From assembly GCA_022496205.1 (NCBI GenBank), contig WTXD01000095.1:1-64000 (forward strand): a DNA stretch of 64,000 bases. Reading direction: 5' to 3'. Both the position numbers and the translations under genes were made by a program. Shown here one piece after another: positions 15,712-64,000 of this stretch. A model generated the notes under the pieces. The model ran no database searches. It was not told where the DNA came from and saw nothing but the letters and a program-made list of their open reading frames with translations. Every line of letters begins with the position of its first letter. The stretch's first letter is position 1. Source of the stretch: Gloeopeniophorella convolvens. Its lineage: Eukaryota; Basidiomycota; Agaricomycetes; Russulales.

Positions 15712-16422
15712 TGTTCAAACTAAACTATATGCTAAGCAAACTTATAGTTTGATCTAAGCATCAGACAAGAAATCATGACACCCTGCTCTCAAACTGATGG
15801 CTGGGTAGGAGCCTGGGTTTAACCCCTCCAAAATATTGGATTACAACTATAGGCACTCATGTGCCTATGGTCACCATCTAGGACTATCAACCCCCTTTAA
15901 AATATTAAAATATAATCATGGGCACATAGGTGCCTATGATCACTATCTAGGTTAATCATCTCTAAAATATCAAATTATAACTATAGACACCCATATGCTT
16001 ATGGTCACCATCTAGAGCTATCAACCCTCTTTGAAACATCAAATTACAACTATAGGCACATGGGTGTCTATAGTTATCATTTAGGGCTATAAACCCCCTT
16101 TAAAACATTAAATTACAACCATAGGCATCACCTAAGGCTATGAACCCTCTCTAAAATATCAGATCTCAACCACAGGCACCCATGTGCCTATGGTCACTAT
16201 CTAGGGATATTAACCCCCTCTAAAATGTCAGATTGCAACCATAGGCACCCATGTGCCTATGGTCATCACCTAGGGATATCAACACTCTCTAAAATGTTAG
16301 ATCGCAACCATAGGCACCTATGTGTCTATGGTTCTTACCTAGGTTATTAAATGATAAAATCTAATTTGTTAGCTACTAACCCACCTACTAACCCTGACCC
16401 ATAGCTAAAAGCAAGGTATAAT
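15712..16422. repeat. 69-bp hairpin minisatellite, module 2 (shorter)
   Basis: A near-identical copy of the leader and first units of module 1 (14107-14570 matches 15712-16190), but with only about eight units before the same tail (ending GCAAGGTATAAT). It lies directly head to tail with module 1. Confidence 0.8.
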
Positions 16423-18872: not shown

Positions 18873-19117
18873 GGTATAATGTGCCTATGGTCACCACCTA
18901 GGGCTATTACTCCCTCTAAAATATCAGATCTCAACCATAGGCACCCTTGTGCCTATGGTCATCACCTAGGGATATTAACCCTCTCTAAAATGTCAGATTG
19001 CAACCATAGGCACCCATGTGTCTATGGTTCTTACCTAGGTTATTAAATGATAAAATCTAATTTGTTAGCTACTAACCCACCTACTAACCCTGACCCATAG
19101 CCAAAAGCAAGGTATAA
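18873..19117. repeat. 69-bp minisatellite, truncated module 3
   Basis: About two and a half 69-bp units plus the same tail ending GCAAGGTATAAT as modules 1 and 2. Preceded by TAGGGGTATAAT, so both edges carry GGTATAAT. It abuts a family A LTR scrap at 19118. Confidence 0.75.
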
Positions 19118-43444: not shown

Positions 43445-43878
43445 TGTCTGCATGTATATACATGTTATGAAATCTAATTGCGATCTCTGTATTGATGTGC
43501 ATGCTATGAATGTGGTAGTGAAAGCAAGCGTGAGCGCACCAGGGCACGAAGGACCGGGCCAGGGCACACAATTGAAGAGAGGTCCCAGAAGTACATGGTT
43601 TATTCGGCATTACTGTGACGCTTTTGGGATACTTCCTGTGTAATGGCGGTAGTCCTTGATGCACTCCAAAAGTAACCAGGACCCACTATACTAGTGGGGT
43701 GAATTTGATGACTCGTGAAGTATGTACAAAAAGGCTAACGTCCTCGCGTCACGAGCGACGTCCTTATATACGCTTTTCGATAATCACGAGTGACCGGTTA
43801 TCACCCAACCGGTATGATCCTAAACCCATAACGATTCGTCTCCGGCCAGTGCACGTGTGGTACACGTGCGCCCTTACA
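43445..43878 (-). mobile_element. 3' LTR of G2 (left boundary tentative)
   Basis: The right boundary is clear: reading the minus strand, the polypurine tract ends and TGTAAGGGCGCACG begins at 43878. A TATA box (GTATATAAGGACG) lies near 43770. The left end is set at TGTCTGCATG (43445) because it gives TG..CA ends and a size of 434 bp, but no second copy is in the window to confirm it. Confidence 0.55.
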
Positions 43879-43892
43879 TCCTCCCCCTCTGG
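43879..43892 (-). promoter_or_regulatory. Polypurine tract of G2
   Basis: On the minus strand CCAGAGGGGGAGGA directly precedes the LTR start TGTAAGG. This is the expected primer site for plus-strand DNA synthesis and fixes the 3' LTR boundary. Confidence 0.8.
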
Positions 43893-44220
43893 ATTGGCCT
43901 GCAATCCAGAACGTATAAGTCCTCGCGCATCGCGTCAGTACCGTCGTCGGTCGAATCAACAGCGTGATCGGCGCCCGCGACGTAGTTCACGGCGACGGGC
44001 AGCGCACGGGCGACAGTGCTATCGTAGTTCACGGTAGACTGCGCCAAGTGGTTGTTCGCGTTCGACGAGGTACTGCCGTTAAGTCCAACAGTGTGATCGA
44101 CGCCTGCGACATAGTTCACGGCGACAGACGGCACACGGTCAACAGAGCCAACGTAGTTCACGGTGGTCTGCACCAGATGGTTGTTTGACTTCGACGAGGT
44201 GTCGGCGATGCGGGTAGAGG

Positions 44221-44705
44221 TGTTGAAGCGCAGCAGAGGGTGGAGTGACAACTGAAGGACACAAAGTGACGCTCAGTCAGAGAAGGTCAAAAGACTTATA
44301 TATTAGTGCAATACCTGAAGGACACAAAGTGACGCTATAAGGTAAAGTAAGCATAAGGTAGAAGTGAAAGGAGTGGTAGTGTACTTGCCTCAGTCAGAGA
44401 AGGTCAAAAGACTGAGGCTATAAAGGCGAAAGAGGAGGTCCTTTTATACAAGTAAGGAACGACAATAGCATGTGATAAACAATGCTTAGAAAGCCTAGGA
44501 GACCCACATGAAACGGAGTAAGAGTGAGTACCAGAGTATAGGGTGGATCATGGAATGCCCTAGAATAGTCCAGAACATGGAAACAAATGTGGGGCTAAGC
44601 ACAGCCTTAAGTCTAGAACATTATGTACACAAGATAAGATAGTCCTTGATCATTAGGTCCATATCTAATCTAATCAGAGCCGCCAGGACACTGTCCGTCT
44701 CAACA
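44221..44705 (-). mobile_element. Solo LTR, family A, copy 6, inside G2
   Basis: 485 bp in minus orientation with 5-bp duplication AGAGG (44216-44220 and 44706-44710). Removing it together with one duplication restores the G2 reading frame. Confidence 0.9.
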
Positions 44706-45552
44706 AGAGGACAAGGAGTTGGGACCAGACAGGTAGTTGCCAGTGCGTTGTACGATGAGAGCAGTAGGACAGATGGGGTACATGTTGGGTTGGAACACAG
44801 CGCCGCCCGGGAACGTAGCGTTAGCGGGCCAGGGGTAGCTCGCGTTGATCTCCGCGACCATGGGGAACTCAGGCCAGTCTGCCAAGCAGTCATGCAGACG
44901 CGGAATGGATAAGTTACGGCGACGTATGGCGTAGAGTTCTAAGTCGATGAGTTGAGTTGAACGAGGCTTGAATCCCATGCTCGCAAAGTGAAGAGCGACG
45001 TCCTTGGCGGTCGCGTTATGTCCGTCGCCAGGATAGTACCGAAGTTGGACACCGTCCGAGTGGCTGGTCGGAGCTACGTTGCAAGAGTATAGAACGCGCT
45101 CATAGTACCCACAGATCGAGAATAGGTCCCAGACCTGCGTCTCGAATGCTGCGCCTAAATTGCGTTGCGCAGTCTGATGCACGGGGTCTAAACCTCCCCG
45201 CAAGTAGTCCAGGTGAGCTTGAATTGCTCTGTTGTCCAGAATTGCGCCAGTGCGGTGCGACACCTCCGAAAGGATGCCACGCGGGGTCTACGTAGGGTGA
45301 TGTCGCAGGTACGTTTGCCATTCGAGCACCGAGACTGGCGGGTTGGTGCAATGGGTGTGGAGTCTGTAGTAGAGTGCGTGTTATTGACCGTGTTACGCAC
45401 TCCCCCTCCCCCTCTGTACGACGTACTAGCATGGTGCGCTTTGTACGCAGGTGGCGTATCGTAGCCCCGAGTACTAGCAGGGGCCGGGGCTGAGCCCACA
45501 AGTGCAGTACGAGCCTGGCGGTACTCGCGTATGAACATAGCCTGAGGCCCCG

Positions 45553-48500
45553 TCAGAGATCGACGCCCGACGAAATCGTCGCGAAGGTCACGGGCGCGAT
45601 TGAGTGCGTTTTCGTCCGTTGCAGTGCAATCGACCAGTCACCTAGCGTCATCCGCGGAGCATATTTGGAATTGCTCCCAGTACGCGGACCTTGCCTCGTT
45701 GGGGGAGCGGGCCTCCGAGTCACGTCGTTGCAAATGCCCGAACGTGCCTTCGTCGCGGTCCGAGACGCGCGCGCTTCCGTTCTTGGGCTTGGGACTCGAC
45801 GTAGTCCCTCGCTCGTGTGATATGAGCTGGCGAGCTCGTTCAACAGCTTGTCCTTCTTCTCGGTCAGAACCTCGACCTCGTAGCCAAGGGCCTTGCACTT
45901 GTCCTCAGCTGTGTTGACTTGGGTCTGGAGCTGCTGGGTCATAGCGTGCGCCTCGTCTCTGCTGCGTACCGCCTCGTTCTTGTCGGCTAGCGCATTCGCA
46001 ACAGTGAGCTCTGCGTCCGCGATGGCTGCCTTAGTGATGTCCTGGGCCTTGGACACTTCGATGGAACGCTTGACGACCTCGCACGCGTTCTGGGCTTGGG
46101 CTTTGGTAATGCCCACTTGCTCGATGGAGTTGAGCCAGTGTTCGCACCCCAGGCAAGCCGGCTGCCAGGACGGATCCGCATCATTGAGGTGAGTGAGGTA
46201 ACTGGCACAGGTAGGGCATGATTCGCTGTGGATGATCAACTTGGTGTCTACATCCCAGCGCCAGAAGTCGTAGGGTGCCGTAATGTCGCGAGCGTCGTGG
46301 GGAATAGAAGAGTCAAGTCCAGCCACGAAGTCAACTGTAGCGCTCGGAGCCCCACCTCTTCCGTTGGGGTCAATGAGAGTGTCGCCTGGGGCGATAGAGA
46401 AAAGTGAGTCGTCCATAGGGGAGTCTGTCATCGCTGACCGGGTAGTATTGCTAGATAGTAGTCTCCAGTGTCGCTTCACCCATCTTATACCATGCACGTT
46501 GCGCGCGCCAGCCTCTTTGACACCTACGCGCATTGTATTCAGTCGCAGGGCTGATGGGTCTTCGGTTGTTGAGTGGGTTTTGTCGCATTCTTCGACAGCG
46601 TGTGCAGAGTGAAAGCGAGGATTTGTTCCCTCGCTTCGCGGTAAATCCTCCCAGTCCGGCACTCCCTGCAGACCCAGATACTCATCCAGAGCTGCCAGGT
46701 CCTTGCAATTTTCGTAGGTTTCCCATGTCTTATCCCCGGCCGGCCATTCTACTTGAAATTCGATCGCGGCGCCCTGTCCATCATCGTCGGTCCATCGGTG
46801 GTTGACGATGGCCTCCACGCGCCATTCCTCTTCCTCAAGTGCGCCGAAATCGTACCAGCGACGCGCTTCGCGATTCGGGAACAGTGCGTCATCATTCGGT
46901 TCGTACTGGCGAAGCAGTGATGCGTGGAACACAGGATGTATCCGCCGTTGCGTCAATTCTGGTGGTAGTTCCAGACGATACGTCGACGTTTCCGGATGCG
47001 CCGACAAGATCTTGAACGGACCCACAAATTTTGGGTTCAGTTTACTGGCGCGTCCACTTGGGAGTTTCAGATTTGCAGTACTCAGGTAAACTTGGTCTCC
47101 AGTGTGGAATGGTTCAACAGTCGTACGTCGTGCGTTCGCATGGTGAGTCTGCCGAACTCGGCTTTCGCGAATTGCGTCCTTGGCGCACTGTACTGCCCAT
47201 TGCGCACGGTGTGCAAATTCTCGTACGCCAGGATATTCCGTCTCGTTTAGCGGCATGGGTAGGAAGCTTGGTGAGTACCCGTAATTGAGTTCAAATGGAG
47301 ACATCCCAGTGCTCGTACTGATGCTGGAGTTTATAGCAAATTCGGTCATGTCAAGTCGATCAATCCAGTCCATTTGATCTGAGGTGACCATGCTGCGCAG
47401 TATTTGCGTGACAGATCGAATCGCTCTTTCTGTGGCGCCATCTGTCTGTGGGTGGAATGAAGTTGACATCAACAGAGTGGTGCCCGCGAGCCTGTGGACC
47501 TCGCGCCAGAACGCCGAAGTGAATCGAACGTCCCGGTCCGAGACTATGGACTTAGGTACGCCATGCAGTCTCACCACTTCCCGGTGGTATATTACCGCAA
47601 GTTCGGCTGCTGAAACGGTAGTTTTTACAGGGACTAGGTGTACCATTGATGTCAAGCGATCAATGATCACCCATAGGAAGTCGTATCCGCGTGATTCAGG
47701 AAATAGACCAGTGAAGTCCATCCCGATGGATTCCCAAGGTCGCGCGGGATAGTGTTAAGACGGACAGTGTCCTGGCGGCTCTGATTAGATTAGATATGGA
47801 CCTAATGATCAAGGACTATCTTATCTTGTGTACATAATGTTCTAGACTTAAGGCTGTGCTCAGCCCCACATTTGTTTCCATGTTCTGGACTATTCTAGGC
47901 ATTCCATGACCCACCTTGTACTCCGGTACCCACTCTTACTCCGTTTCATGTGGGTCTCCTAGGCTTTCTAAGCAGTATTTATCACATGCTATCTGTCGCT
48001 CCTTACTGTATATAAGGACCTCTTTCTTCGCCTTTGTAGCCTCAGTCTTTTGACCTTCTCTGACTGAGGCAAGTACACTTACGCTCCTTTCTACTTTCTT
48101 ATACTTACACTACCTTACAGCGTCACTCTGTGTCCTTCAGGTATTGTTGTAATCAGTCTTTTGACCTTCTCTGACTGAGCGTTGCTCTGTGTCCTTCAGT
48201 TGTCACTTCACCTCTACTGCACTTCAACAGATAGGTAAGTTGTGAAGTGATCCCATAGGCGGTTTATTTGCCGGTTTAGATGTCTGACAGTTTCCGCAGG
48301 TCGTGCAGAATTTTTCAGTGTCCACTCCAAGCTTCGGCCACCAGTACCACCGGCGCAAGTAGTTCGCGGTCTTTCGTTCTCCAAAATGGCCAACCACCTT
48401 GTGCGCCGAGTCAATGATCAATTCGCGTATGCTCCGTTGTTCGTGAAGTCCAGCTGGTATGCATAATAGTCGGCGTCCGACATTCTGTTTCAGCCAAACG

Positions 48501-48720
48501 AATCCATCTTCCATTATGAAATTCGTGTGAGCCTCCGGTTGTTGCAGTATGATCGCAAACAGGGGGTCGGTAGTATATGCGTCACGGATGGTGCCCAGAA
48601 TGGCTGACTTGTTTTTGATAGGAACTTCGGCGGATCGAGGTTTACTCCGCGCACAATCAGGGGTTTCACTCGGGTCTGCATTGGTGAGGGGCATTGCTTT
48701 TTCCCCTGATTTGTTGTCTT
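45553..48720 (-). pseudogene. G2 integrase, chromodomain and coiled-coil tail
   Basis: The zinc-binding N-terminus is at about 48250-48450 (SAHKVVGHFGERKTANYL, then CTTCGNCQTSK, an HHCC module). The catalytic core continues left of the solo LTR: MDFTGLFPESRGYDF (first Asp), PKSIVSDRDVRF (second Asp) and GATERAIRSV (Glu). It is followed by the GPF/Y-like FVGPFKILSAHPETSTY, HPVFHASLL, and a chromodomain at about 46655-46840 (EWRVEAIVNHRW, EFQVEWPAGDKTWE). After it come an acidic linker, SCPTCASYLTH and a coiled coil of about 95 residues (KAQDITKAAIADAELTV, EDKCKALGYEVEVLTEKKDK). The left part is one open frame of 722 codons (45553-47721). Chromodomains guide Gypsy integration to heterochromatin. 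The solo LTR at 47753-48229 splits the integrase. Confidence 0.85.
47753..48229 (+). mobile_element. Solo LTR, family A, copy 7, inside the G2 integrase
   Basis: 477 bp with 5-bp duplication GATAG (47748-47752 and 48230-48234). Its first bases read TGTTAAGACGG, a one-base change from the consensus. Splits the integrase between PMGSLHNLPI and MDFTGLF. Confidence 0.9.
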
Positions 48721-50402
48721 ACGCTTGGGTTCCCTTTTTCTTTGGGTCCCTTGCGTTTGGTCGTACAGTCTGGGCAGCCTCAATGCGTTGCAGTGGATGG
48801 TACTTGTCCTTCTGCTTCCAGCGCAGTTGCATCGCACGAAGGTTCAATTCGGCGGTCCTAGTAAGTCATCGCCTTCCGGATCCAGTTTCGCGTCTACTGA
48901 CACGAACTCAGTATTAGAGCATCGTCTGTACTCGTGTCGTAGTATCGTGAGAAGCAATCGGCGACCTTGTTTCGCTTCCCTTCACATATACAATCTCCAA
49001 GTCGAACTTGGACAGGAATCTACCAGCTACTTGCCGTGGCACAGATCACGCTGCGTCTTGAAGAATTCGAGCGCTTTGTGATCAGTGACCACCGTGAAGT
49101 GTCGCCCAATTAACTTGTCTTCCCATTTTGCCAGTGCTTCCAGTATCGCGATCGTTTCATGCTCAAAGGTGCGGTAGTTCCATTGTGCGTTCGAAACTTC
49201 TTTGACATGAACCAGCAGGTCGACAAGTCTCCCACTCAGTCCTTGTCCATAGACAGCGCCTACGCCCCGTGTAGACGCGTCGCAAATTACCCAATTGGAT
49301 CAGGTTTACTTGCGTCTATCGGACGCAAGACTGGATATTTGCACGCTAACGCTTTGATAGTTTCGAAGCATTTGTTTGAAGCGGTCCCCAATGGAACATA
49401 CGGCCATTTGATGTCAGCATCGATAAGTGTCGTGTACGCTGATATGTCCGGCAAGAAATTCGCCAAGTATTGAACGAGTCCCAAAAATCGCTGTACATCG
49501 TTGTAGTTTTTGGGTTTGGGCCACTGTCTAATTTTCGACATTTTGTCGCTATCAGCGTGAAGTCCTTGTGTCGATCAGGTGTCCCAGACATTCCATCGAT
49601 TTTGAATACAGGTCGCACTTATCTTTACTCAAGAATAGGTGGTTCTCGCGAAGGCGATCAAATACGATCTTCAGGTGCGCTTCGTGTTCTTCTATCGTGA
49701 GTGAGAATATGAATATGTCGTCCAGATAGACGTGAACATAGATCCCGATCGCGTCTTGGAATATCAATGTCATCAGGCGTTGAAATGTATCAGGTGCGTT
49801 ACAGTCTCCTTGTTGCATTACCCAGCTAACAAACGTTCCGAACACTGTTGCAAATGCGGTTTTCCAAATGTCTGCAGGCTTGATCCGAATCTGTTCGTAG
49901 GCGTCGCTCATGTCAATCTTCGACCGATATGGCGCGCGAGCCACATCCATACGTATCTCGTCCTGATCTGGGAACGGCATAACTTCTTGTAAGTGTTATC
50001 GTTTCGTTTTCGCGCGTCTACTACCGTTCGTAATTTTCCAGACTTCTTGGGGATACACATCAATGGAGCCGCTTCAGTTACTGCCTTACGTTCCCACCAG
50101 CCAGCTTGGATGTATCGCTGGAGTTTTTCTAGCAATTGTGGCTTGAGGGCTTCAGCGCAGCATGGTAGATGATAACGGTGCGTCTTATTCTCGTCAATTA
50201 GTGGTATTTTATGATTAATGGCTCGCAGTGGCAGCAGTTCTAATGGTACCGGTTGTGTTAGATCTTGGATCCGATACATCCAATCGTCGCGGAGTCGTTC
50301 TGTGCTTTCGTTCGTGCGTTTTATTTTTCTCGGGTTGTCCTGACTTGCTTCGCCAGACTTGTTAGACCATGCAGGTTCCGCCCGAACGGAACTCGCGGTC
50401 AT
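48721..50402 (-). pseudogene. G2 reverse transcriptase and RNase H
   Basis: The RT starts near 50290 (WMYRIQDLTQPVPLELLPL), has the template-binding segment AAPLMCIPKKSGKLRTVVDAR and, after a 1-bp frameshift near 49985, PFPDQDEIRMD, KIDMSDAYEQIRI and the catalytic motif YVHVYLDDIFIFS. A second shift near 49550 leads to the connection region (KIRQWPKPKNYNDVQRFLGLVQYLANFLP). The RNase H part, 48900-49280, is scattered over frames (VICDASTRGVGAVYGQGLS, RQVAGRFLSKFDLEIVYVKG). It would copy element RNA into DNA; it is inactive here through at least three frameshifts. Confidence 0.8.
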
Positions 50403-50405
50403 GAG

Positions 50406-51409
50406 TCAATCTGACCCCATGCGGTTTGTGTGCAGACGTGGGTGAGTCTCCTTCCCGCGCTTTGCTCGCATTGCGCGCTCCTCCCCCACTGAAACGCACG
50501 GCAGGGTCATATTGCCGATTCGGATTTCGCGCCGTTCAAAGTCAAGTACCACGCCATTCTGAGCCATGAATGGTGTTCCCAGGATCACGTCGTAATGGTC
50601 AATGTTTATGATATCCAGGTACGTTGTAACGTCTCTACCTGCGGCATGGATCCTTGTATTGACACCGTGGTTGATTTTAGACTTGCTACCGACACATCCC
50701 AGTTGCAGTGTTAGTGGCTTCTCAAGTTCGAATGGTTCGAGTCATGCGACGTGCGCTGCATCCGGACTAATGCCATTCGTCGTACTTCCACTATCGAACA
50801 GAGTGTACATCGTTGTGCCCCCAATTGCAATGTTAGCGGCTAGTACGCGTTCTACTGCAACATTACGTTCTGGCTGGGCCTGTGCGTTATCGGCTTCCCT
50901 AGCGCCGCACGGTACGTCCATTGTCCATGGAATTTTCTTCCTTGGGTGGCTTATTTGGCGCACAGGCTTGTCTCCCATGGACATTGCACGGAACTCAACG
51001 TATGTTTCTGCTGCAGTGTCATAAGTGCATCTCAACAATAGGGCCCACTTCGGAGGGGATGCTGCTCAATATGTTCAGTGCGACCTCTGCTATATGCAGC
51101 CCAGCAATTGTTTCCTCGCGCAATAGTGGTGTCCGCATCCAGTGCATTCCCGCGGTACGCAGGGCATCCATCGCGGCTTCAAGAGCATCATTGTACCCGT
51201 GGTTGTATGCCATGAGTGGTTCCGCTCCTAATTGCGCGATGCTGTTGATAAGGCTGTGGTCTCCGTTTGTCCTAGCTTCCTGGTGGTGTCGTAGATACAC
51301 CGCGCAGTCCGCGCATGCTCCTTCGTCATAGGCTACTACAAAATCCTCCTGGACATGCCACGTGTGAGGCTTGGGACTGGAACTGGAGTCGTCCGCCGAT
51401 ACTGCTGTC
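50406..51409 (-). pseudogene. G2 gag/pro region with aspartic protease
   Basis: From the junction at 51409 the frame starts AVSADDSSSSPKPHTWHV and contains CADCAVYLRH, similar to CPTCASYLTH after the chromodomain. The retropepsin follows: TTMYTLFDSGSTTNGIS holds the catalytic DSG, and YDVILGTPFMAQNG the C-terminal ILG motif. A TGA near 50744 (HVA-stop-LEPFEL) probably arose from CGA. A frame overlap at about 51020-51040 separates the two open pieces. It is the direct continuation, in frame, of the gag at 58844-60796 once the G1 insertion is removed. Confidence 0.8.
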
Positions 51410-52113
51410 TGTGGCGGGAGCTCCAACTCCGCACAACACCAGTACGGTCAAAAGGAAGGTTGCTGAGACAACCGGCAAGGCGTTCGCGCAGAGCAGAGTC
51501 TTGCGCCAACCAGAAACACAGGAGCGATCGTCAACTTGACCACCTTTGTGCAAGGCAGCGACGACGGAGTCAAACTGTAGAAGAATCTGGTCCTCAAGAT
51601 TAGAACTGTAGTACTACTACAGAGAGGCTGTTGGCACTCTTACCTGGTCCTCAAGAGGAAAGTCTGAGGACCTAAGTGCGCAACTACATGGGTTTATATA
51701 CTACTAGAGGAGTGCTTACAAAGCTACTCCGCAGCTGCTGACTGAGCGACTTGGTGCTGACTGATGCACCTTACTCACGCTCACTAAGCCAGTTTCCCAC
51801 ACTACGTCATGCTCACTCAGCGATGACATCATGCGCAGCACAATCTAGACTACTGACGTCACCATGACGTCACAACCCAAAGTCCATGGCCTCTAGGCCC
51901 TTCCAGCCCATTCTAACCCTAGTATCCCACGGGACGAGTCACAAGACGAGTCACGTGCCGTCATGTGCAGCTTACGTAAGCCTGCACCTAACGCAAAGGA
52001 AATAATTCCCGTGGAATATGTACTTTTAGCACTTCTTCGATTACTCAGCTAGCAGTGAAGGCTTAAGCCTGCTAGATGGTCCAGGAATCCTTCGAAAAGA
52101 CGCGTCCGTGACA
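51410..52113 (-). mobile_element. 3' LTR of G1
   Basis: 704 bp, TGTGGCGGGAGC to CGTCCGTGACA on the plus strand. Promoter-like TTTATATACTACTAG near 51693 (TATA box on the minus strand). From the CTGGTCCTCAAG block to the end it is almost identical to the other two G1 LTRs; the first 190 bp carry small indels. Confidence 0.9.
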
Positions 52114-52128
52114 TTACCCCCGTCTTCA
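52114..52128 (-). promoter_or_regulatory. Polypurine tract of G1
   Basis: On the minus strand GAAGACGGGGGTAA lies directly before the 3' LTR start TGTCACGG, the expected plus-strand primer. Confidence 0.65.
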
Positions 52129-53896
52129 GGGTCGAGCGTCCACGTCTTCGACATTTGGATCCTGTGTGAACTTGTATGGCGATTGCCATGGCATGGACGC
52201 GTAGGAGATCGCAGCCAACTTGCGAGGCGCGCCCGGATTGCGGCTGTAGAACTCTTGTACAGCTTCCGAGGCATGCTCCAGGTTCTTGGCTGGCTCCCAC
52301 GTGTCTTCGCCTTCACCATACCCCTTCCACCGCACGAGGAATCGGAGTTGATTGCGGAACATCTTTGCGTTGAGAACGCGTTTCACTTCGTACTCTTCTT
52401 CCCTTCCACGACTACTGGTCGGGAGGCGGCGGAGTTAGGCCATTGACTTCATTGCCTTTGTAAGGCGAGAGGCGATCCACATGGAATACGTCGTGGATCT
52501 TGAGGGCAGGGGGGAGATCCAGGCGATAATCTAGATCCGACAGCTTTTCTTTCACAGTGAAAGGGCCGAGTTGCTTCGGGCCCAGCTTCCGTGAAGGCTG
52601 GTGGATCTTGATGTTCTTTGCCTGGAGCCAGACCTTATCTCCGACATTGAAGTCGTGAGGTTTGCGTGTCTGCTCCTTGCCCGTCATGCGCTGCTTACTT
52701 AAGCGAAGCGCAGCCTCTGCGTCCTTACGGACACGCGTCAGCTCTTGCAGACGGTGATCTAAGCGGGGAATGCCGCTTGCTCGTCCTACTGGGATCGTGA
52801 AGTCCGGAGTATACCCATACATGACTTCGAACGGGGTATGGTCGGATGCTGAACTCAATCTAGAGTTCATCACAAATTCCGCAGTAGGAAGATACCGGGT
52901 CCAATCATCCTGGCGTTCATCGACATAGAGCCGGAGGTATTGCTCTACCTCCTGATTCTTGCGCTCTGTCTGGCCATTGGCTTGTGGATGATAGGCGGTT
53001 GTGAAACCGGCATCTATGCCCAACCGTTTGTATACGGCCCGCATTGTCCGCGCTGCGAACTGGGGACCCCGATCTGAGACGATCTTCTTGGGGATCCCGT
53101 GCAACGGGAAGACGTGGTCGAAGTACACGTTTGCGACTCCTTCAGCCGTGATTTCCGTAGTGACGGGGTACAAGTGGACCTGCTTGCTATAGTGGTCCAC
53201 GACCGTCAGAATGGCGTCTTTGCCATCCGACACTGGCAGGGGTCCAATGAGGTCTACCCCAATGGTCTGCCAGGGCCCGTCCGGAATCGGCATAGGTTGA
53301 AGGGAGGCCGGAGGATGGTTATCGATCCGGTACCTCTGACACTTGTCGCATCCTTCGACGTACTTCGATATGAAGGTCGTCATGCGGGGCCACCAGAAGT
53401 GGCGTTGGACGAGCTCGATCGTCCCATTTTTACCGGGATGTCCGGCAGTGACTGAGTCGTGGCATAGTTGTACCACGTCGTGTCTCAGGTCTCTGTCTTT
53501 GGGGACATATAGTTTTCCCTGGTAATAAACTAGGCCGTCTACTTCTTCCCAGAGAAGGGTTCCGTCCGTGAGTGCACGTGGAGCGCTTCGGTCTATAGAC
53601 TTTAGACCGGCGACGATGTCCGCTTCGCGCGCACTTGATTCACGGATACGACCTTCAAGGGAACTGCCTAACGTAAGGCGGAAATGGTCCGCAGCAATAT
53701 TGTGGAAGTGCTTTTTACTTAGCACTTGGATTCCCCGATTATCGTCCTTGTCTTGGACTTCATCGGTAGGGAATCTACTCAGGGGTCTGCCTGCATGGAG
53801 CTTCCTTGTTTGTATTTTACTACAAAGTCGAACCGGCTCAAGAATAGAGCCCAACGTGCTTGTCGTCGGTTCAAGTCGTTTCGTTGTGCCCACCAC
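52126..53896 (-). pseudogene. G1 integrase and chromodomain
   Basis: An open frame of 494 codons (52412-53896) carries the zinc module (HDSVTAGHPGKNGTIELV, EGCDKCQRYR), the catalytic core with GVDLIGPLPVSDGKD, KKIVSDRGPQFAARTM and HPQANGQTERKNQEVEQY (D, D, E), the MNSRLSSASDHTPFEVMYGY segment and the KLGPKQLGPFTVKEK and HDVFHVDRLSPYKG motifs. A frameshift near 52410 separates the chromodomain (52126-52386: EVKRVLNAKMFR-type start, FLVRWKGYGEGEDTWEPAKN). The integrase inserts element DNA and the chromodomain binds histone marks. The core looks intact but the element lacks a continuous pol. Confidence 0.88.
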
Positions 53897-54300
53897 GTGA
53901 TGTTTTTGTGGTCGGTCACTAACTCGAACGGTTCAGGAAGTCCTTCCAGGAAGTGTCGCCAGTCTTCGAGGGCTCGGATGACTCCGAGCATCTCACGGTT
54001 GTAGATCTCGTAATTGCGCTCGGCTTCTGACATTGAGCCGGAGCGATACGCGATCGGATGCCATCGACCATCCTCTAACTTTTGACTGAGTATTCCACCA
54101 ACAGCGTATCCGAGGCGTCGGTTTCAAGGCGGGTAGGTCTGGTTTCATCATAGATGGCCAGGATTGGCTCTTCACAGAACCTAGCCTTGAGGTACTCGAA
54201 CGCGTCACGCTGTGCCGCTTCCCATGTCCAGGGGGTTTCTTCTTTGTGAGGTCGTGAAGAGGACGCGCTATCTTAGCGAAGTCTTTCACAACCGGCGATA
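53779..54300 (-). pseudogene. G1 RNase H domain, frameshifted
   Basis: The RT frame stops at FANFYRRL (54286) where one base must be skipped to continue VKDFAKIARPLHDLTKK. After two more frame changes (near 54220 and 54060) the RNase H end is open: AERNYEIYNREMLGVIRALE, WRHFLEG and ELVTDHKNITWWAQ, then ARWALFLSRFDFVVKYKQG. These are the usual Gypsy RNase H motifs. Confidence 0.8.
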
Positions 54301-56205
54301 GAAGTTTGCGAAGCCGACGAATGCCCGAACGTCTTTCAGGGTCATTGGTGTCGGCCACTCCTTCACCGCATGAACCTTGGCAGGGTCCATGCTCACCTTT
54401 CCGGGGGTGATTACCATCCCGAGGTACTCCATGCGTTCTGAATGGAATTCGCACTTCTCCGGGCGGAGGAAGAGATCATGGTCGCGAAGTCGCTTTAATA
54501 CCTCTCTAACAATGACACGGTGGCTTTCCATGTCTTGTGTATAGATGAGGATATCGTCTAGATAGACGGCGACTTTTCCTTGCGCGATTAGATCGGCGAA
54601 TACCGAGTTCATTAGGGCTTGGAAGGTGGCGGGGCTATTCGACATGCCGAAGAACATGACTTTCGGCTCGAATAGTCCTCGTGACGTAGAGAACGCCGCC
54701 TTCCATTCGTCTCCTTCTTTGATACGAATGTTGTTGTAGCCCCAACGTACATCGAACTTTGTGAAGTACTTTGCTCCTTTGAGCCGATTGATGATGTCCG
54801 AAGCGAGTGGAAGTGGATAGCGATTTTTGATCGTAATCGCATTGAGCTTCTTGTAATCTTGGACCAATCGGAGTTTACCGTCCTTCTTCTTGATAAAGAA
54901 GACAGGCGAGGCCATCGGTGACTTGGATGGCACGATATACCCCTTTTTACTTTGGTCCTCGATAAACTCATCGAGAAGTTTCGCTTCTGGAGGACTCATC
55001 GGATACACCCTCGTTTTCCAGTGCATCTTGGCACCGGGTTCGATATCGATGGTGTGATCCCATGGCTGATGCTCAGGGAGCCGGGAGGATTCTTCCTCGG
55101 AGAAAACTTTCGCGAAGTCGTGGTATTCTTTTGGTACGATCTCTGCGAATGTGCGCTTCTTCTTCTCGCTAGCGGATTTCTCCGCTATTGCTTGCGAGTA
55201 AGTGAAACCTGCGTCACACCACAGTTCGTCCGTAGAATGTTCCAGGACCTTGTTCGCCAGGAACGTCCGCCTTTGCATGCGATTTGCAGCGATGCGGAAG
55301 ACCTGTGGCTCTACTGGATCATTAACACCCTCAGCGGTAGATTCCGCGCTATTGGAGTGAATGTCCATAGTGCCGTTCTTCCAATCGATGCTAGGGTTCA
55401 CATCCCTTAGCCAAGGAAGTCCGAGAATGCATTTCTCAGGACCCAGATCCGTCACGAGGAACTCGACACGTTTGTCGTAGTCGCCAACTTTTAAGGTTAG
55501 GGTGACTTTATGCGTTATGTCACCCGCCTTATTGGCAGTTCCGTCGATGTTTCTGACTAGGATCGGCTTGGCTAGTGGAACTTCTAGCATCCGGCGTTTC
55601 TTCACGTAATGGCGGTCCAGGAACAACGCCGTAGCCCCGGAGTCCACCATAGCTGGTAACGTATCACTACGTCTTTTGCCCAATAACTTTATGTATATAT
55701 GGAAATGGGAAGGATCGGACTTCCCAATTTCCGGAATGGTACACGAATTCAAACTATCTACAGGAATGTTCATCTCTGAGGCCGATGTAGATGGTAGGGG
55801 AGCGGGGTCGAGAGCGGGAATACAATCTGCGCTAGTCGAACTACAAATGTTCACCGAACAGTCCGGTGTGTATGTACCGAGAATGGAAACACTTGGCGCC
55901 ATATGGGCAATGGACGCGGCAATACTCGGCGAGTCGTCCTCCAGCTTAGGGGACTCGCGCTCTAAAAAGACGCCTTCAGCGCCTCTATTTGCTTTAGCAT
56001 CTCCGCCTGCTGTTCCATCAATTTCTTGATGGAGTCCTTTTCGGCGGAGGACTGCTCTTTCTTGGGTGCTGGCGGCGGTGAGGCCGTCGAGCCAGCGGAT
56101 GTGTTTGCGGAGACGTCCGCAGTCTTTATGTCGGCCTTGGGTTTCCCCATGTGCCTGATCATGCAGACCGTGGACCTGTGCCCTGCCTTGCGGCACCAGT
56201 TGCAC
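54286..56205 (-). pseudogene. G1 protease and reverse transcriptase
   Basis: Open frame of 639 codons. After a Ser/Pro-rich linker the retropepsin has PAMVDSGATALFLDRHYV (DSG) and KCILGLPWLRDVNP. The RT follows: KSPMASPVFFIKKKDGKLRL, KYFTKFDVRWGYNNIRIK, AFSTSRGLFEPKVMFFGMSN, PATFQALMN and the catalytic VAVYLDDILIYTQ, ending in the connection segment VRAFVGFANFY. It overlaps the gag frame (55962-56471) in a different frame, so a programmed frameshift between gag and pol is possible. The frame ends early at 54286 by a 1-bp shift. Confidence 0.9.
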
Positions 56206-57600
56206 ACGTCCCGCTCGTGGTTGCCCTCTTTTTTAACGTGGTCGGTCGAACCACAACCGTAGCACTTCCCGCGCATGAACGCCTGGAACTCGGCGCGGGT
56301 TTTGATAGTGCCGCCAGTCTCTTGTTTCTTCCCAGAGGACTGGCGAGTCTGGGTGCGAGTGGCGTCTACGTCCATCGCATCGGGATCCTTGTAGCTCTGT
56401 TGGATCGACGGAACAGTGATCCCTTTCTGTTCCGCGTCGTATTCGCGCATGCGCTCGTCGATTCGGCGCATGGCGGATATGAAGTCCCCGAGGGTTTCGG
56501 GGTCTTTGATGTATTGGCGTATAGCCGGGACTTAAGAGCTTGTGAAAGCCCGGCTTTGAATCTCACTTTGAGGTCCGGTGGAGAGAGACCGGTGGTCCGC
56601 GCAAGAGTTCGAACTTGGCGACATATTGCTCCAGTGACATTACTGGAGGCTTCTTGGGGTGGGCTGCATGTGCAGCGCCTGGATTTCGCGGAGGGCGTCG
56701 AGCTGCGCGTCCGTCGTAATGAAGCGCTTGCTCCATTCGTCCGCGAAGTCGCGCCACGTGAGGTATCCAATACCTCCCGTCCGCATCCTTTCCAGGGCTG
56801 GCAAGGCCCACGACTTTGCTTCACCTTCTTGAAGGTTCAGCGCGTTGGAAACCCAACGAGCGTCCCAACGTTTGAACTGCTCGTCGTCCTCATCCCAACG
56901 ATTGAGGAGACCGCCGGAGTTTTCGGCGTAGTTATAAAATGCCGCCATCCAATGGCGAGCATCCATGGAGGAACCACCCTTCCATGGCTGTGGTGAGGAC
57001 ACCGATGGTTTTGTGTTGGGCATGCCACGCCCTCTTTGTGCGGCAGCAACACCCGCACCATCTGACGGAGGAGGAGGGGAGGGGGACCGCCACCACGGCC
57101 GCCGCGTCTCTCGGTCAGCGCCTGCATCGACGTGGCCAGTATGTGGATGCTTCCGACATATTGGCGATGCAGTGCCCCAGGTATTCGATGGTTATCTCCT
57201 GGGGCGGCGCTGGGGAGGACGGCGGAACGGTTGGATTGGGGGCAGATCCGGAGTGAGAAGCCGAAGGATCCATAGGAAATCTTCAAGGATAAGGCGAGCA
57301 GTAGCACCAGCAGCTTGAAGAATGTCCGTGGGAGTCGGCGTCCCAGAAGAGGAATCAGAAGGTATAGGGGAGGGAGAGCCTTCTTGAGCTATCCTTTTTC
57401 CACGACGTTCGGCTTGTCGTGCCCTTTTGTCGGCTGCCTTCTGAGCTTTGCGCCTAAGCTTCGATGTTTCCGGCGATACGATAGATGCCGGGATGGACGA
57501 AGGCGCAGGGGATGGTGGTCTCCTTGATCGCGACCGCGATGGGAGACGGGAGAGGGGTGGAACGGGTTGGCTGATGTGGGTCGACCTTGTCTACCACGAT
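55962..57600 (-). pseudogene. G1 gag with CCHC zinc knuckle
   Basis: Capsid-like segments are MDARHWMAAFYNYAENSGG, RWVSNALNLQEGEAKSWALP, DFADEWSKRFITTDAQLD and ARTTGLSPPDLKVRFKAGLS in different frames. The nucleocapsid (55962-56471) has CYGCGSTDHVKKEGNHERDV followed by the CCHC knuckle CNWCRKAGHRSTVC and a C-terminal coiled coil (EMLKQIEALKASF). The likely start is ATG 57273 (MDPSASHSGSAP) or further upstream near 57560, where a basic coding-like segment (KAQKAADKRARQAERRGKR) is read. Single-base deletions near 57147 and 56658 break the frame. Confidence 0.8.
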
Positions 57601-58148
57601 CTGCCAGGTGACGTGCGTAGGGTTTCAAAGTAACCCTCAACTAGGACTCTTCGCGTAGATTTATGCGATGATACTCGTGCCGCGTAACGCTAAGCAACGA
57701 GGCGAGAGGAGAGGAAGTGGGATGGGGTCGCAATGTAGGTGACCAAGGCTGTCTGACTCAGGCTTCTCGCCCTGTTGTCTGCCTCTTTGTCAAAGGGACA
57801 CGAGCCCAATGACGTCCTGCACAGTTTCCCGTCAACCGCTTTTCTGCACCGATCTACAGTCTTTTGCTTAGACTGGAGGATCACAGCTCAGAACCGGATT
57901 TTACACTCCCGTGGTGAGGAGGTTCCGCGCCCTGCCGAACTCGCAAGAGTCCAGAAGCCTAAGGCTCAACTGATAACCTGGGTGTAGCGCGTGGATCGGG
58001 GGCGACTGCACAAGGGTCCTACACTACTAGCTGCTACTACGACTGATCTAGCTCTACCCCGAAGGCAAGAGACTAGAGAAGAACTTGGAAAGATGGAACA
58101 CGAGGCCCTTTGTCAAGGGGCCGGGTGCTATGAGAGAGACTTTCCTAA
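57601..58148 (-). other. Leader of G1 after the 5' LTR
   Basis: Region between the 5' LTR and gag. Directly after the LTR the minus strand reads TTAGGAAAGTCTCTCTCATA; I cannot match this to a tRNA end with confidence, so the primer is unknown. It matches the right-hand copy at 61503-62030. Confidence 0.5.
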
Positions 58149-58843
58149 TGTGGCGGGAGCTCCAACTCCGCACAACACTAGTACGGTCAAAGGAAGGTTG
58201 TTTGAGACAACCGGCGAGGCGTTCGCGCAGAGCTGAAGTCTTGCGCCAACCAGCAACCAGGAGCGATGTCAACTTGGACCTTTTGCAAGGCGCACGACGA
58301 GTCAAACTGTAGAAAGCTGGTCCTCAAGATTAGAACTGTAGTACTACTACAGAGAGGCTGTTGGCACTCTTACCTGGTCCTCAAGAGGAAAGTCTGAGGA
58401 CCTAAGTGCGCAACTACATGGGTTTATATACTACTAGAGGAGCGCTTACTAAGCGACTCCGCAGCTGCTGACTGAGCGACTTGGTGCTGACTGATGCACC
58501 TTACTCACGCTCACTAAGCCAGTTTCCCACACTACGTCATGCTCACTCAGCGATGACATCATGCGCAGCACAATCTAGACTACTGACGTCACCATGACGT
58601 CACAACCCAAAGTCCATGGCCTCTAGGCCCTTCCAGCCCATTCTAACCCTAGTATCCCACGGGACGAGTCACAAGACGAGTCACGTGCCGTCATGTGCAG
58701 CTTACGTAAGCCTGCACCTAACGCAAAGGAAATAATTCCCGTGGAATATGTACTTTTAGCACTTCTTCGATTACTCAGCTAGCAGTGAAGGCTCAAGCCT
58801 GCTAGATGGTCCAGGAATCCTTCGAAAAGACGCGTCCGTGACA
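58149..58843 (-). mobile_element. 5' LTR of G1
   Basis: 695 bp, same ends as the LTR at 51410. Its right neighbour is GTGGC, immediately followed by G2 gag sequence, so this edge is an insertion or recombination junction. Confidence 0.9.
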
Positions 58844-60796
58844 GTGGCCCCACCGTGGTCTATGAGCATCGAGGACAAGCTCATGGAGATGATTGATGAC
58901 CGGATCGGACGATCCACACCTGTGGGGATAAGCCCTATCAAGGGATTGAAGATCCAATTCCCTGACCCCTATCGAGGGCAAAACTCACTTGAGGTCTTTG
59001 AAATCTGGCTCGGAGACTTGTTGAGATGGATGCATCTTAACCAGATGAATGGTCTGGATCGAGATGAAGACCGAGTTGTAGTTTTGGGAATGGCGCTTCG
59101 CGAAGAGGCGTCCAAGTGGTTCTTCCGGGAGGTGGAATCACCCACTCACGCGCGTCGGCAATGGAACTTCAAGGACGTTATAATTGCACTTTACACACAT
59201 TGCGTACACAAGACTACTGCACAGGACGTGATGGATGAGTTTAACAACACTCGCTACTCAAGGAAAGGAGGTGTCGCGACGTACTATAATGATCTGCAAC
59301 ACCGCGCTTTGAGATTGGTGGAGCCACCCAATGACTATACGTTCCGCAAGCTATTCATGAGCGGGCTCCCGGAAGACATCAGCAAGAACTTACTCAAAAC
59401 ACGGGCGATCTCTGCAGAGCATGCTACCATTGAAGAGATTCTTGGCACAGCACTTGAGGTCGAGCATGTTGAAGCGCAGCAGAGGGTGGAGTGACAACTG
59501 AAGGACACAGAGTGACGCTCAGTCAGAGAAGGTCAAAAGACTTATACATTTAGTGCAATACCTGAAGGACACAGAGTGACGCTATAAGGTAAGGTAAGCA
59601 TAAGGTAGAAGTGAAAGGAGCGGTAGTGTACTTGCCTCAGTCAGAGAAGGTTAAAAGACTGAGGCTACAAAGGCGAAGAAAGAGGTCCTTATATACAGTA
59701 AGGAGCGACAGATAGCATGTGATAAACACTGCTTAGAAAGCCTAGGAGGCCCACATGAAACGGAGTAAGAGTGGGTACCGGAGTACAAGGTGGGTCATGG
59801 AATGCCCTAGAATAGTCCAGAACATGGAAACGAATGTGGGGCTGAACACAGCCTTAAGTCTAGAACATTATGTACACTAGATAAGATAGTCCTTGATCAT
59901 TAGGTCCATATCTAATCTAATCAGAGCCACCAGGACACTGTCCGTCTCAACAGAGCAAGGGATTCGGCTGTTCAATAAATATAATCAGTCACAATCTCGA
60001 ATGAAGCAGTCTGATACTCCCATCTTGGACAAACGGCGCCCTGGGAATGACACCAGGACCAAGAACCGCGATCGCCGACCCGTAGAAAGGACGCGCGACA
60101 ACAGCGCGCCAGCTGCAAGTCGTACGGCACAGCCTGAAGCACGCGACCAAAAACCCTGGCAGCACACTATGCCAACCACAACTCAGCCGGCAAAAAATAA
60201 CTCGTTTACTCAAAACATGCACCCTGACAAAACGACTGACCGTGCGAAGGAAATAACTTGTTTTCGCTGTGGCAAGAAGGGCCACTACGCTGCGGACTGT
60301 TACTCTAAACTGCATCAATGTGTGTACGCACAACGTGTCGAGGAACCCGACGAGAACGATACTGATTCTGCACCTGATCGGGAGCCAAGCGAGGAAGATG
60401 GGAACGTCGCGGGAGAATGCACGGACGAGATCGAGCAGTCATCAGATGATGAGCCGTTGTTTGGGGAACAATATGAATCTGAGGACGAGCGCGGGTCAGT
60501 AACCGGCACATCTGAACAAAGCGACGAATACGGACCTCAAATAAACTTGGCTACAATGCGGTTTGCTGCTATGCACGTCGAGGACGAGACTACAGAAGAC
60601 ACGTCAGACTTGGAGTTCGACTCTGACGATATGCCACCTCTTACCTGCATGGATCATATGATCGCTGAGGAAGTGGACAAAGTCCAGCGCGCGAAAACAT
60701 TGGATGACGACTTCATACGCGTAACACCCTATAGTGAGGGTGAAGTGCTGGTCGAAGTAAACACGCACCGGGTGGCTGCAGCATACGCGTGGACAG
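58844..60796 (+). pseudogene. G2 gag with zinc knuckle, inverted relative to G2 pol
   Basis: Plus-strand gag truncated at its 5' end by the G1 LTR. The capsid region is open to 59466: SPIKGLKIQFPDPYRGQ, EIWLGDLLRWMHLNQMNG, MALREEASKWFFRE, VMDEFNNTRYSRKGG and FRKLFMSGLPEDIS. After the solo LTR (59467-59952) it continues EQGIRLFNKYNQSQS, a basic linker, the CCHC knuckle CFRCGKKGHYAADC and a long acidic stretch (SEDERGSVTG, TSDLEFDSDDMPP). It ends AAAYAWT at the GACAG junction with the G1 LTR. Joined to 51404 on the other strand it runs on in frame as AVSADDSSS. This identifies it as the missing half of G2. Confidence 0.85.
59467..59952 (-). mobile_element. Solo LTR, family A, copy 8, inside G2 gag
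   Basis: 486 bp in minus orientation with 5-bp duplication GAGCA (59462-59466 and 59953-59957). Gag continues on both sides. Nearly identical to copies 3-6. Confidence 0.9.
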
Positions 60797-61502
60797 TGTC
60801 ACGGACGCGTCTTTTCGAAGGATTCCTGGACCATCTAGCAGGCTTGAGCCTTCACTGCTAGCTGAGTAATCGAAGAAGTGCTAAAAGTACATATTCCACG
60901 GGAATTATTTCCTTTGCGTTAGGTGCAGGCTTACGTAAGCTGCACATGACGGCACGTGACTCGTCTTGTGACTCGTCCCGTGGGATACTAGGGTTAGAAT
61001 GGGCTGGAAGGGCCTAGAGGCCATGGACTTTGGGTTGTGACGTCATGGTGACGTCAGTAGTCTAGATTGTGCTGCGCATGATGTCATCGCTGAGTGAGCA
61101 TGACGTAGTGTGGGAAACTGGCTTAGTGAGCGTGAGTAAGGTGCATCAGTCAGCACCAAGTCGCTCAGTCAGCAGCTGCGGAGTAGCTTTGTAAGCACTC
61201 CTCTAGTAGTATATAAACCCATGTAGTTGCGCACTTAGGTCCTCAGACTTTCCTCTTGAGGACCAGGTAAGAGTGCCAACAGCCTCTCTGTAGTAGTACT
61301 ACAGTTCTAATCTTGAGGACCAGCTTCTTCTACAGTTTGACTCAGTCACTGCTGCCTTGTATAAAGGTAGCCAAGTTAGCGATCGCTCCTGTGTTGCTGG
61401 TTGGCGCAAGACTTCAGCTCTGCGCGAACGCCTCGCCGGTTGTCTCAAAACAACCTTCCTTTGACCGTACTAGTGTTGTGCGGAGTTGGAGCTCCCGCCA
61501 CA
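60797..61502 (+). mobile_element. 5' LTR of a second, inverted G1 copy
   Basis: 706 bp, TGTCACGGACGCG to GCTCCCGCCACA, plus orientation. Left flank GACAG (60792-60796) is the complement of the flank beside the other G1's 3' LTR at 51405-51409. Confidence 0.9.
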
Positions 61503-64000
61503 TTAGGAAAGTCTCTCTCATAGCACCCGGCCCCTTGACAAAGGGCCTCGTGTTCCATCTTTCCAAGTTCTTCTTAGGTCTCTTGCCTTCGGGGTAGAGC
61601 CTAATCAGTCGTAGTAGCAGCTAGTAGTGTAGGACCCTTGTGCAGTCGCCCCCGATCCACGCGCTACACCCAGGTTATCAGTTGAGCCTTAGGCTTCTGG
61701 ACTCTTGCGAGTTCGGCAGGGCGCGGAACCTCCTCACCACGGGAGTGTAAAATCCGGTTCTGAGCTGTGATCCTCCAGTCTAAGCAAAAGACTGTAGATC
61801 GGTGCAGAAAAGCGGTTGACGGGAAACTGTGCAGGATGTCATTGGGCTCGTGTCCCTTTGACAAAGAGGCAGACAACAGGGCGAGAAGCCTGAGTCAGAC
61901 AGCCTTGGTCACCTACATTGCGACCCCATCCCACTTCCTCTCCTCTCGCCTGTTGCTTAGCGTTACGCGGCACGAGTATCATCGCATAAATCTACGCGAA
62001 GAGTCCTAGTTGAGGGTTAACTTTGAAACCCTACGCACGTCATCCTGGCAGATCGTGGTAGACAAGGTCGACCCACATCAGCCAACCCTTCCTACCCCTC
62101 TCCCATCTCCCATCGCGGTCGCGATCAAGGAGACCACCATCCCCTGCGCCTTCGTCCATCCCGGCATCTATCGTATCGCCGGAAACATCGAAGTTAAGGC
62201 GCAAAGCTCAGAAGGCAGCCGACAAAAGGGCACGACAAGCCGAACGTCGTGGAAAAAGGACAGCTCAAGAAGGCTCTCCCTCCCCTATACCTTCTGATTC
62301 CTCTTCTGGGACGCCGACTCCCACGGACATTCTTCAAGCTGCTGGTTCTACTGCTGCCTTATCCTTCAGAGTGTTCCTATGGATCCTTCGGCTTCTCACT
62401 CCGGATCTGCCCCCAATCCAACCAATCCGCCGTCCTCCCCAGCGCCGCCCCAGGAGATAACCATCGAATACCTGGGGCACTGCATTGCCAACATGTCGGA
62501 AGCTATCCACATATTGGCCACGTCATGCAGACGCTGACCGAGAGACGCGGTGGCCGTGGTGGCGGTCCCCCTCCCCTCCTCCTCCGTCAGATGGTGCGAG
62601 TGTGCTGCCGCACAGCAAAGAGGGCGCGGCATGCCCAACACAAAACCATCGGTGTCCTCACCACAACCATGGAAGGGTGGTTCCTCCATGGATGCTCGCC
62701 ATTGGATGGCGGCATTCTATAACTACGCCGAAAACTCCGGCGGTCTCCTCAATCGTTGGGATGAGGACGACGAGCAGTTCAAACGTGGGACGCTCGTTGG
62801 TTTCCAACGCGCTGAACCTTCAAGAAGGTGAAGCAAAGTCGTGGGCCTTGCCAGCCCTGGAAAGGATGCGGACGGGAGGTATTGGATACCTCTCGTGGCG
62901 CACTTCGCAGACGAATGGAGCAAGCGCTTCATTATGACGGATGCGCAGCTCGACGCCCTCCGCGAAATCCAGGCGCTGCACATGCAGCCCAACCCCAAGA
63001 AGCCTCCAGTAATGTCACTGGAGCAACATGTCGCCAAGTTCGAACTCTTGCGCGGCACAACCGGTCTCTCTCCACCGGACCTAAAGTGAGATTCAAAGCC
63101 GGGCTTTCACAAGCTCTTAAGTCCCGGCTATAGCCCAATACATAAAGACCCCGAAACCCTCGGGGACTTCATATCCGCCATGCGCCGAATCGACGAGCGC
63201 ATGCGCGAATACGACGCGGAACAGAAAGGGATCACTGTTCCGTCGATCCAACAGAGCTACAAGGATCCCGATGCGATGGACGTAGACGCCACTCGCACCC
63301 AGACTCGCCAGTCCTCTGGGAAGAAACAAGAGACTGGCGGCACTATCAAAACCCGCGCCGAGTTCCAGGCGTTCATGCGCGGGAAGTGCTACGGTTGTGG
63401 TTCGACCGACCACATTAAAAAAGAGGGCAACCACGAGCGGGACGTGTGCAACTGGTGCCGCAAGGCAGGGCACGGTCCACGGTCTGTATGATCAGGCACA
63501 TGGGGAAACCCAAAGCCGACATTAAGACGCGGACGTCTCCGCAAACACATCCGCTGGCTCGACGGCCTCACCGCCGCCAGCACCCAAAAAGAGCAGTCCT
63601 CCGCCGACAAGGACTCCATCAAGAAATTGTGGAACAGCAGGCGGAGATGCTAAAGCAAATAGAGGCGCTGAAGGCGTCTTTTTAGAGCGCGAGTCCCCTA
63701 AGCTGGAGGACGACTCGCCGAGTATTGCCGCGTCCATTGCCCATTGGCGCCAAGTGTTTCCATTCTCGGTACATAACACCGGACTGTTCGGTGAACATTT
63801 GTAGTTCGACTAGCGCAGATTGTATTCCCGCTCTCGACCCCGCTCCTCTACCATCTACATCGGCCTCAGAGATGAACATTCCTGTAGATAGTCTGAATTC
63901 GTGTACCATTCCGGAAATTGGGAAGTCCGATCCTTCCCATTTCCACATATACATAAAGTTATTGGGCAAAAGACGTAGTGATACGTTACCAGCTATGGTG
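61503..64000 (+). pseudogene. Second G1 copy: leader, gag and start of pol, cut by the window end
   Basis: Inverted copy of 55640-58148. Gag pieces include DARHWMAAFYNYAENSGG, SLEQHVAKFELLRG, the nucleocapsid (63180-63491: CYGCGSTDHIKKEGNHERDV, then CNWCRKAGH) and the C-terminal coiled coil ending at 63685. Its frame breaks differ from those of the left copy: near 62524 one base is missing at a point where the left copy is intact, while the left copy's deletion near 56658 is absent here. The start of the protease linker follows, and the window ends inside it. Confidence 0.85.

What the first reader, a model, noticed from the sequence alone, without database searches (positions are those of the whole stretch)
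51405..60796. G1 inserted into G2, then an inversion between inverted G1 copies split G2
Seen: G2 pol (minus) ends at 51409 with CTGTC beside a G1 LTR; G2 gag (plus) ends at 60796 with GACAG beside another G1 LTR. CTGTC is the complement of GACAG, so both are one 5-bp target duplication. Joining gag at 60796 to the reverse complement of 51404 gives one uninterrupted frame (..AYAWT-AVSADD..). Inference: a second G1 in opposite orientation had inserted upstream in gag with target GTGGC (58844-58848), and recombination between the two inverted G1 copies flipped the segment between them.
Basis: partly seen in the sequence, partly recalled or inferred. Interest (0 to 1): 0.75.

Follow-up and report, generated by a model that had tools for sequence, protein, structure and literature searches.

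The report
Retrotransposon split by an inversion
In a fungal genome, two copies of one jumping gene landed in opposite directions inside another jumping gene, and recombination between them most likely flipped the piece in between; the missing end was found on another contig as predicted, and the event is of a well-known kind.

Summary
G2 pol (minus) stops at CTGTC (51405-51409) beside a G1 LTR; G2 gag (plus, 58844-60796) lies between GTGGC and GACAG, each beside a G1 LTR.

The missing end is on contig C30: a G1 3' LTR followed by GCCAC, the one exact hit in the genome, then reversed sequence open for 121 codons in the gag phase, then G2's other LTR (237 of 240 identical, my count) with the same TCCTG duplication. 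The joined outer G2 flanks match unbroken sites on C216 and C124. The four G1 flanks thus pair crosswise, a published mark of inversion between inverted copies (PMC2775673).

LTR heads pair left with right clearly, mid with C30 only in a tie; LTR tails do not follow, which calls for later gene conversion. An assembler flip cannot be excluded without reads. Verdict: well supported, a new member of a known kind.

The parts
43634..43638 (.). TCCTG, target duplication on the left side of the whole G2 insertion
   Evidence: The same 5 bp follow the other G2 LTR at C30:8105-8109; unbroken site on C216 and C124
43639..43878 (-). G2 3' LTR (TGTAAGGG..CATTACA read on the minus strand)
   Evidence: Best other match is C30:7865-8108, 99%; other long matches are 92% or less, short pieces of 28-55 bases reach 94-98%; alignment
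43879..51404 (-). G2 3' body (pol, minus strand), decayed, holding copies of a third, 486-bp element
   Evidence: Tf2-1 SH3 above its cut-off; rve and chromo below theirs; ORFs
51405..51409 (.). CTGTC, outer flank of the left G1; complement of GACAG at 60792-60796
51410..52113 (-). G1 LTR 'left' (3' LTR, assigned to insertion b)
52114..58148 (-). G1 internal region (RT, integrase; protease-like match below cut-off), full-length copy with mismatched flanks
   Evidence: Pfam RVT_1, Integrase_H2C2, rve, SH3_Tf2-1 above cut-off
58149..58843 (-). G1 LTR 'mid' (5' LTR, assigned to insertion a)
58844..58848 (.). GTGGC, inner flank of the left G1; complement of GCCAC at C30:1421-1425
58844..60796 (+). 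G2 gag segment, inverted relative to both outer parts of G2
   Evidence: Zinc knuckle above cut-off; its first 617 bases and its right end match only here in the genome; phases
59467..59952 (.). 486-bp insertion inside the gag segment, most likely a solo LTR, duplication GAGCA
   Evidence: Termini TGTTGA..TCAACA and both flanks; other copies
60792..60796 (.). GACAG, inner flank of the right G1
60797..61502 (+). G1 LTR 'right' (5' LTR, assigned to insertion b)
61503..64000 (+). Right-hand G1, 5' part; goes on to contig base 64456, where another large element begins

Best explanation
G2 inserted first (duplication TCCTG). Two G1 elements then inserted in it: one (b) at GACAG near the gag-pol junction in the orientation of G2, and one (a) at GTGGC further upstream in gag in the opposite orientation. 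A crossover between the two inverted G1 copies flipped the roughly 2 kb of G2 between them. That left two hybrid G1 copies with exchanged target duplications and G2 in three pieces of alternating orientation. Later another element of more than 10 kb landed in the right-hand G1 (C400:64456/64457), and the assembly broke there, leaving the 5' end of G2 on contig C30. Shown: the flanks and their crosswise pairing, the phases, the G2 LTR, duplication and pre-insertion site, and the left-right LTR-head pairing. Inferred: that the flip was a single homologous exchange in the cell, the order of events, later gene conversion in the LTR tails, and the physical link from C400 to C30.
For: The four G1 flanks pair crosswise: CTGTC/GACAG and GTGGC/GCCAC. 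The pattern GTGGC + LTR end has one exact hit in the genome, C30. C30 sequence beyond GCCAC is open for 121 codons in the gag phase, against 21 and 89 in the other phases. The pol side is open for 127 codons in the expected phase, against 22 and 25. The G2 LTR on C30 is the best match in the genome, in the predicted orientation, and is followed by TCCTG as on C400. The joined outer G2 flanks match C216 and C124 as one stretch at 98% over 178 of 182 bases. LTR heads (first 515 positions), over 378 pairs of 28 long LTRs: left-right differ at 1, the third closest of all pairs; mid-C30 at 3; within the present copies left-mid differ at 4 and right-C30 at 6. The two G2 segments tested match nowhere else, so no second G2 copy of that kind supplied the flanks. 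All 16 complete solo G1 LTRs among the 31 LTRs examined have perfect 5-bp duplications, and the other full-length G1 with both LTRs seen, C113, has AGGAG on both sides, so mismatched flanks are exceptional.
Against: mid is as near to right and to C383 (3 differences each) as to C30, so the second head pairing is only a tie. The LTR tails (position 516 onward) do not follow the pairing: right and C30 are identical (0 of 191), but left-right differ at 22 of 189 and mid-C30 at 14 of 180 plus 11 gap columns, whereas the C113 pair shows no tail mismatch (0 of 186; 4 gap columns, one copy's match being cut at 700). Gene conversion or mosaic assembly is needed to explain this. No letters are private to left and right, and their three-site type ATA is also in C5. 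C400 and C30 are not joined, and the G1 stretch between them (left-copy 52827-55187) is not placed. C165 ends inside G1 16 bases from the interruption point with another flank, so its link to the right-hand G1 is not fully excluded. No read data were available.
Confidence: 0.8

Rival explanations
1. Assembler flip: the two G1 insertions in G2 are real, but the middle segment was turned round by the assembly, because it lies between long inverted repeats that reads did not span.
For: Left and right G1 are 97.4% alike over 3.68 kb. Other contigs start or end inside G1: C165, C30, C246. Mosaic LTR tails could be mis-assembly. The same hybrid copies would result from a real or a false flip.
Against: The left G1 is assembled through without N. 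The other full-length G1 (C113) and all 16 complete solo LTRs of the 31 LTRs examined have matching duplications, so joins at G1 LTRs look reliable. The right-C30 tail identity would fit two LTRs of one element, as in the inverted order, though it could also be original.
Confidence: 0.15
2. A third G1 locus took part, for example the one on C165: a translocation or break-induced copying joined the right-hand G1 to another place, and C30 is the other product.
For: C165 ends in G1 at left-copy position 55171, 16 bases from the interruption at 55187/55188, with an unrelated flank.
Against: It needs an extra event. C30 and C400 share the G2 duplication and pre-insertion site, so both outer parts of G2 stand in their original order. 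The C165 LTR is less like the right LTR (92.8%) than is the C30 LTR (99.2%).
Confidence: 0.04
3. Unrelated insertions: the 5-bp matches are chance and no inversion took place.
For: With some 30-40 G1 LTR ends in the genome, one accidental GCCAC flank has a chance of about 3-4% (own arithmetic); C383 and C366 carry GACAG and CTGTC, apparently by coincidence.
Against: Two flank pairs match, both frames are in phase, and C30 holds the other end of the same G2 insertion.
Confidence: 0.01

Closest known systems
Galileo-generated inversion 2z3 of Drosophila buzzatii (PMC2775673; passages seen, parts of the abstract among them)
   Same: Two copies in opposite orientation flank the inverted segment and their target duplications are exchanged; copies reported chimeric there, partly so here
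   Different: There a DNA transposon and a chromosomal inversion checked against uninverted chromosomes; here an LTR retrotransposon, a segment of about 2 kb inside another retrotransposon, and no uninverted copy to compare
Ty1-mediated rearrangements in yeast (PMC3102749, search listing and start of abstract only; otherwise recalled)
   Same: Recombination between copies of an LTR retrotransposon
   Different: There an introduced element in a laboratory yeast; this is a decayed natural nest
Human-chimpanzee inversions caused by retrotransposons (PMC2603318, search listing and start of abstract only)
   Same: Retrotransposon copies linked to inversions
   Different: L1 and Alu, not LTR elements; different host

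Membership tests
Inversion by ectopic recombination between inverted transposon copies (criteria as in the passages of PMC2775673) | Two homologous copies in opposite orientation at the two ends of the inverted segment | tested here: met
   Left G1 minus, right G1 plus, 97.4% over 3.68 kb
Inversion by ectopic recombination between inverted transposon copies (criteria as in the passages of PMC2775673) | Exchanged target duplications | tested here: met
   CTGTC/GACAG on C400 and GTGGC/GCCAC on C400 and C30
Inversion by ectopic recombination between inverted transposon copies (criteria as in the passages of PMC2775673) | Both copies chimeric | tested here: inconclusive
   LTR heads: left-right pair clearly, mid-C30 only in a tie; tails do not follow
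Inversion by ectopic recombination between inverted transposon copies (criteria as in the passages of PMC2775673) | Uninverted arrangement with single target copies known | tested here: inconclusive
   No other match to the two G2 segments tested in this genome; frame continuity stands in for it; the outer G2 site has unbroken copies
Inversion by ectopic recombination between inverted transposon copies (criteria as in the passages of PMC2775673) | Physical proof by reads or PCR over the junctions | not testable with these tools
   No reads or DNA
LTR retrotransposon with Tf2-1-like integrase (G1) | LTRs TG..CA, 5-bp duplication, RT and integrase domains | tested here: met
   the protease matches are below their cut-offs (26.6 against 28.2; 22 against 24.3)
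Chromovirus-type Ty3 element (G2) | Integrase followed by a chromodomain | tested here: inconclusive
   Chromo 21.2 bits against a cut-off of 25.1; rve 23.5 against 32.6; SH3_Tf2-1 59.3 against 30

The most novel reading that the evidence does not exclude
The middle segment is not a one-time flip: the inverted G1 pair keeps recombining, so both orientations exist in the species (or in the two nuclei of one mycelium), and the mosaic LTR tails are the trace of repeated conversion between G1 copies.
Probability: 0.12. Interest if true: 0.45.

Novelty: new member of a known kind. Interest (0 to 1): 0.3.

Why it matters
It is a well-documented candidate for an inversion made by LTR retrotransposons in what is probably a mushroom-forming fungus. 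It shows that such flips can be recognised from exchanged 5-bp duplications even when the assembly is broken, and that nested insertions supply the inverted repeats. Its value is mainly as an example and a warning: left unexplained, the same layout would be annotated as unrelated G2 fragments.

Tried and rejected
C165 as the missing partner: it ends in G1 near the interruption, but its LTR flank is ATTATC and the DNA beyond differs from the GCCAC flank. An empty site for either G1 insertion inside G2: none found; the 136-base join of the two flanks and the first 617 bases of the gag segment match only C400, although diverged G2-like LTRs exist elsewhere. Letters shared by left and right LTRs alone: none; the three-site type ATA is also carried by C5, so the pairing rests on distances, not on private letters. 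C383's GACAG flank: the 80 bases beyond it look unrelated to the gag end apart from GTGGACAG, so coincidence (by eye). Relatives of the G2 gag piece in the protein collection: one hit, the window's own protein, among 232 candidates sharing short words. Aberrant transposition of a hybrid element, which PMC2775673 discusses for DNA transposons, was set aside because LTR elements move through RNA (recalled). Paper searches gave no evident fungal case with exchanged duplications in the listings, but one paper only (PMC2775673) was opened, and only as passages; so I do not claim that no such case is in print.

Full report
Setting. The window is bases 1-64000 of contig C400 (74,723 bases) of an unnamed 36.7 Mb genome in 404 contigs. 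A protein read from window 35213-36067 resembles proteins of basidiomycetes, most of the named ones mushroom-forming (120 of 221 hits listed, most without a name), so the host is probably an agaricomycete; the species was not identified.

Observation. The G1 LTRs are left 51410-52113, mid 58149-58843 and right 60797-61502. The left G1 (51410-58843, minus) is complete, but its two flanks differ: CTGTC on one side, GTGGC on the other. Each side of the gag-pol junction was read alone. The gag side ends in AYAWT with one base over. The pol side in the matching phase is open for 127 codons, against 22 and 25 in the other phases.

Past 64000 the right-hand G1 continues only to 64456. From 64457 the contig matches C235:177770-167502 at 99.6% (first 1770 bases) and 99.8% (next 8500) up to its end. 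The same terminus, CATCAGGAAAAAAATC, occurs six times in the genome as an exact match, counting C400; the 57 bases before it in C10, C168, C355 and C386 look unrelated to each other and to G1. So another element of more than 10 kb sits in the right-hand G1, and the contig ends inside its match to C235. The test had to be run elsewhere.

The missing end. The pattern GTGGC + G1 LTR end, with up to two mismatches allowed, gave three sites, of which one is exact: C30:1407-1425. There a G1 LTR (C30:715-1420) is followed by GCCAC. The reverse complement of the next 575 bases is open for 121 codons up to the junction in the phase of gag at 58844, against 21 and 89 codons in the other phases; that phase has two stops further upstream. 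C30:7865-8104 is a G2 LTR in the predicted orientation. It is the best match in the genome to the G2 LTR of C400; other long matches are 92% or less, and short pieces of 28-55 bases reach 94-98%. The two G2 LTRs differ at 3 of 240 positions by my count on the alignment, all three at CpG sites. Both G2 ends carry TCCTG. The joined outer flanks match C216 and C124 as one stretch at 98% over 178 of 182 bases, and five further places at 83-94%; these are copies of the repeat that G2 entered, without G2. C30 is therefore very probably the other end of the same G2 insertion.

LTR history. One search lists 39 LTR matches; I examined 31 (3 in the window, 28 elsewhere) and left out 8. By the flanks, 16 of the 31 are complete solo LTRs, and all 16 have perfect 5-bp duplications (C227 and C379 share their flanks, so 15 independent places). 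Three are cut short in the match, two are the pair of the full-length C113 element (AGGAG on both sides), and ten have internal sequence on one side. I split the LTR at position 515 of the left copy; the true U3, R and U5 limits were not mapped. Heads, over 378 pairs of 28 long LTRs: C113 pair 0, C379-C227 0, left-right 1, then mid-C30 3, tied with mid-C383 and mid-right; within the present copies, left-mid 4 and right-C30 6. Left-right is what exchanged insertions predict; mid-C30 agrees but does not stand out. Tails: right-C30 identical over 191; left-right 22 of 189; mid-C30 14 of 180 plus 11 gap columns; the left tail is nearest to C187. Since an intact copy (C113) has no tail mismatch, the simplest reading is that some tails, probably left and mid, were replaced by gene conversion from other G1 copies, or that the assembly is mosaic there. 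This is the main result against a simple story.

Order of events (inferred from few differences). The G2 LTRs differ at 3 of 240, the G1 LTR heads at 1 and 3 of 515, and the large element differs from its C235 copy by about 0.2-0.4%. This fits G2 first, G1 later and the large element last, but the counts are small and the rates may differ.

Judgement. The layout meets two of the three published marks of inversion by ectopic recombination (opposite orientation, exchanged duplications) and the third (chimeric copies) only in part (for the marks). It is well supported as an assembled structure. Whether the flip is in the organism or in the assembly needs reads. It is a known kind of event.

Noticed in passing
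C400:64457-74723 (L009 from 4457, L010): An element of more than 10.27 kb with terminus CATCAGGAAAAAAATC; six exact termini in the genome, one per contig, none as an inverted pair. It encodes a protein with an Spt5 NGN domain (39.9 bits, cut-off 22.4). Its class is unclear.
   Followed up: partly
window 44221-44705 and 59467-59952: A 486-bp high-copy element; the copy at 59467 has termini TGTTGA..TCAACA, and both copies have 5-bp duplications (AGAGG, GAGCA), so most likely solo LTRs of a third family. More than 40 near-full-length places were listed with only 40 of 332 candidates scored. A similar copy at 47753-48229 was not checked for its duplication.
   Followed up: partly
window 14235-15632, 15840-16343 and 18879-19046: Tandem arrays with a 69-bp unit (also a 275-bp higher-order unit at 14521-15632) in nearby blocks.
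   Followed up: no
C30:1919-2000 (L089 419-500): Inside the G2 5' part, two short stretches resemble the large element of C400 (66178-66245), so that part of G2, about 6.4 kb, may hold a further insertion.
   Followed up: no
C227:12132-12834 and C379:79828-80530: Identical G1 LTRs with identical 12-base flanks on two contigs, probably one locus assembled twice or a duplication.
   Followed up: no
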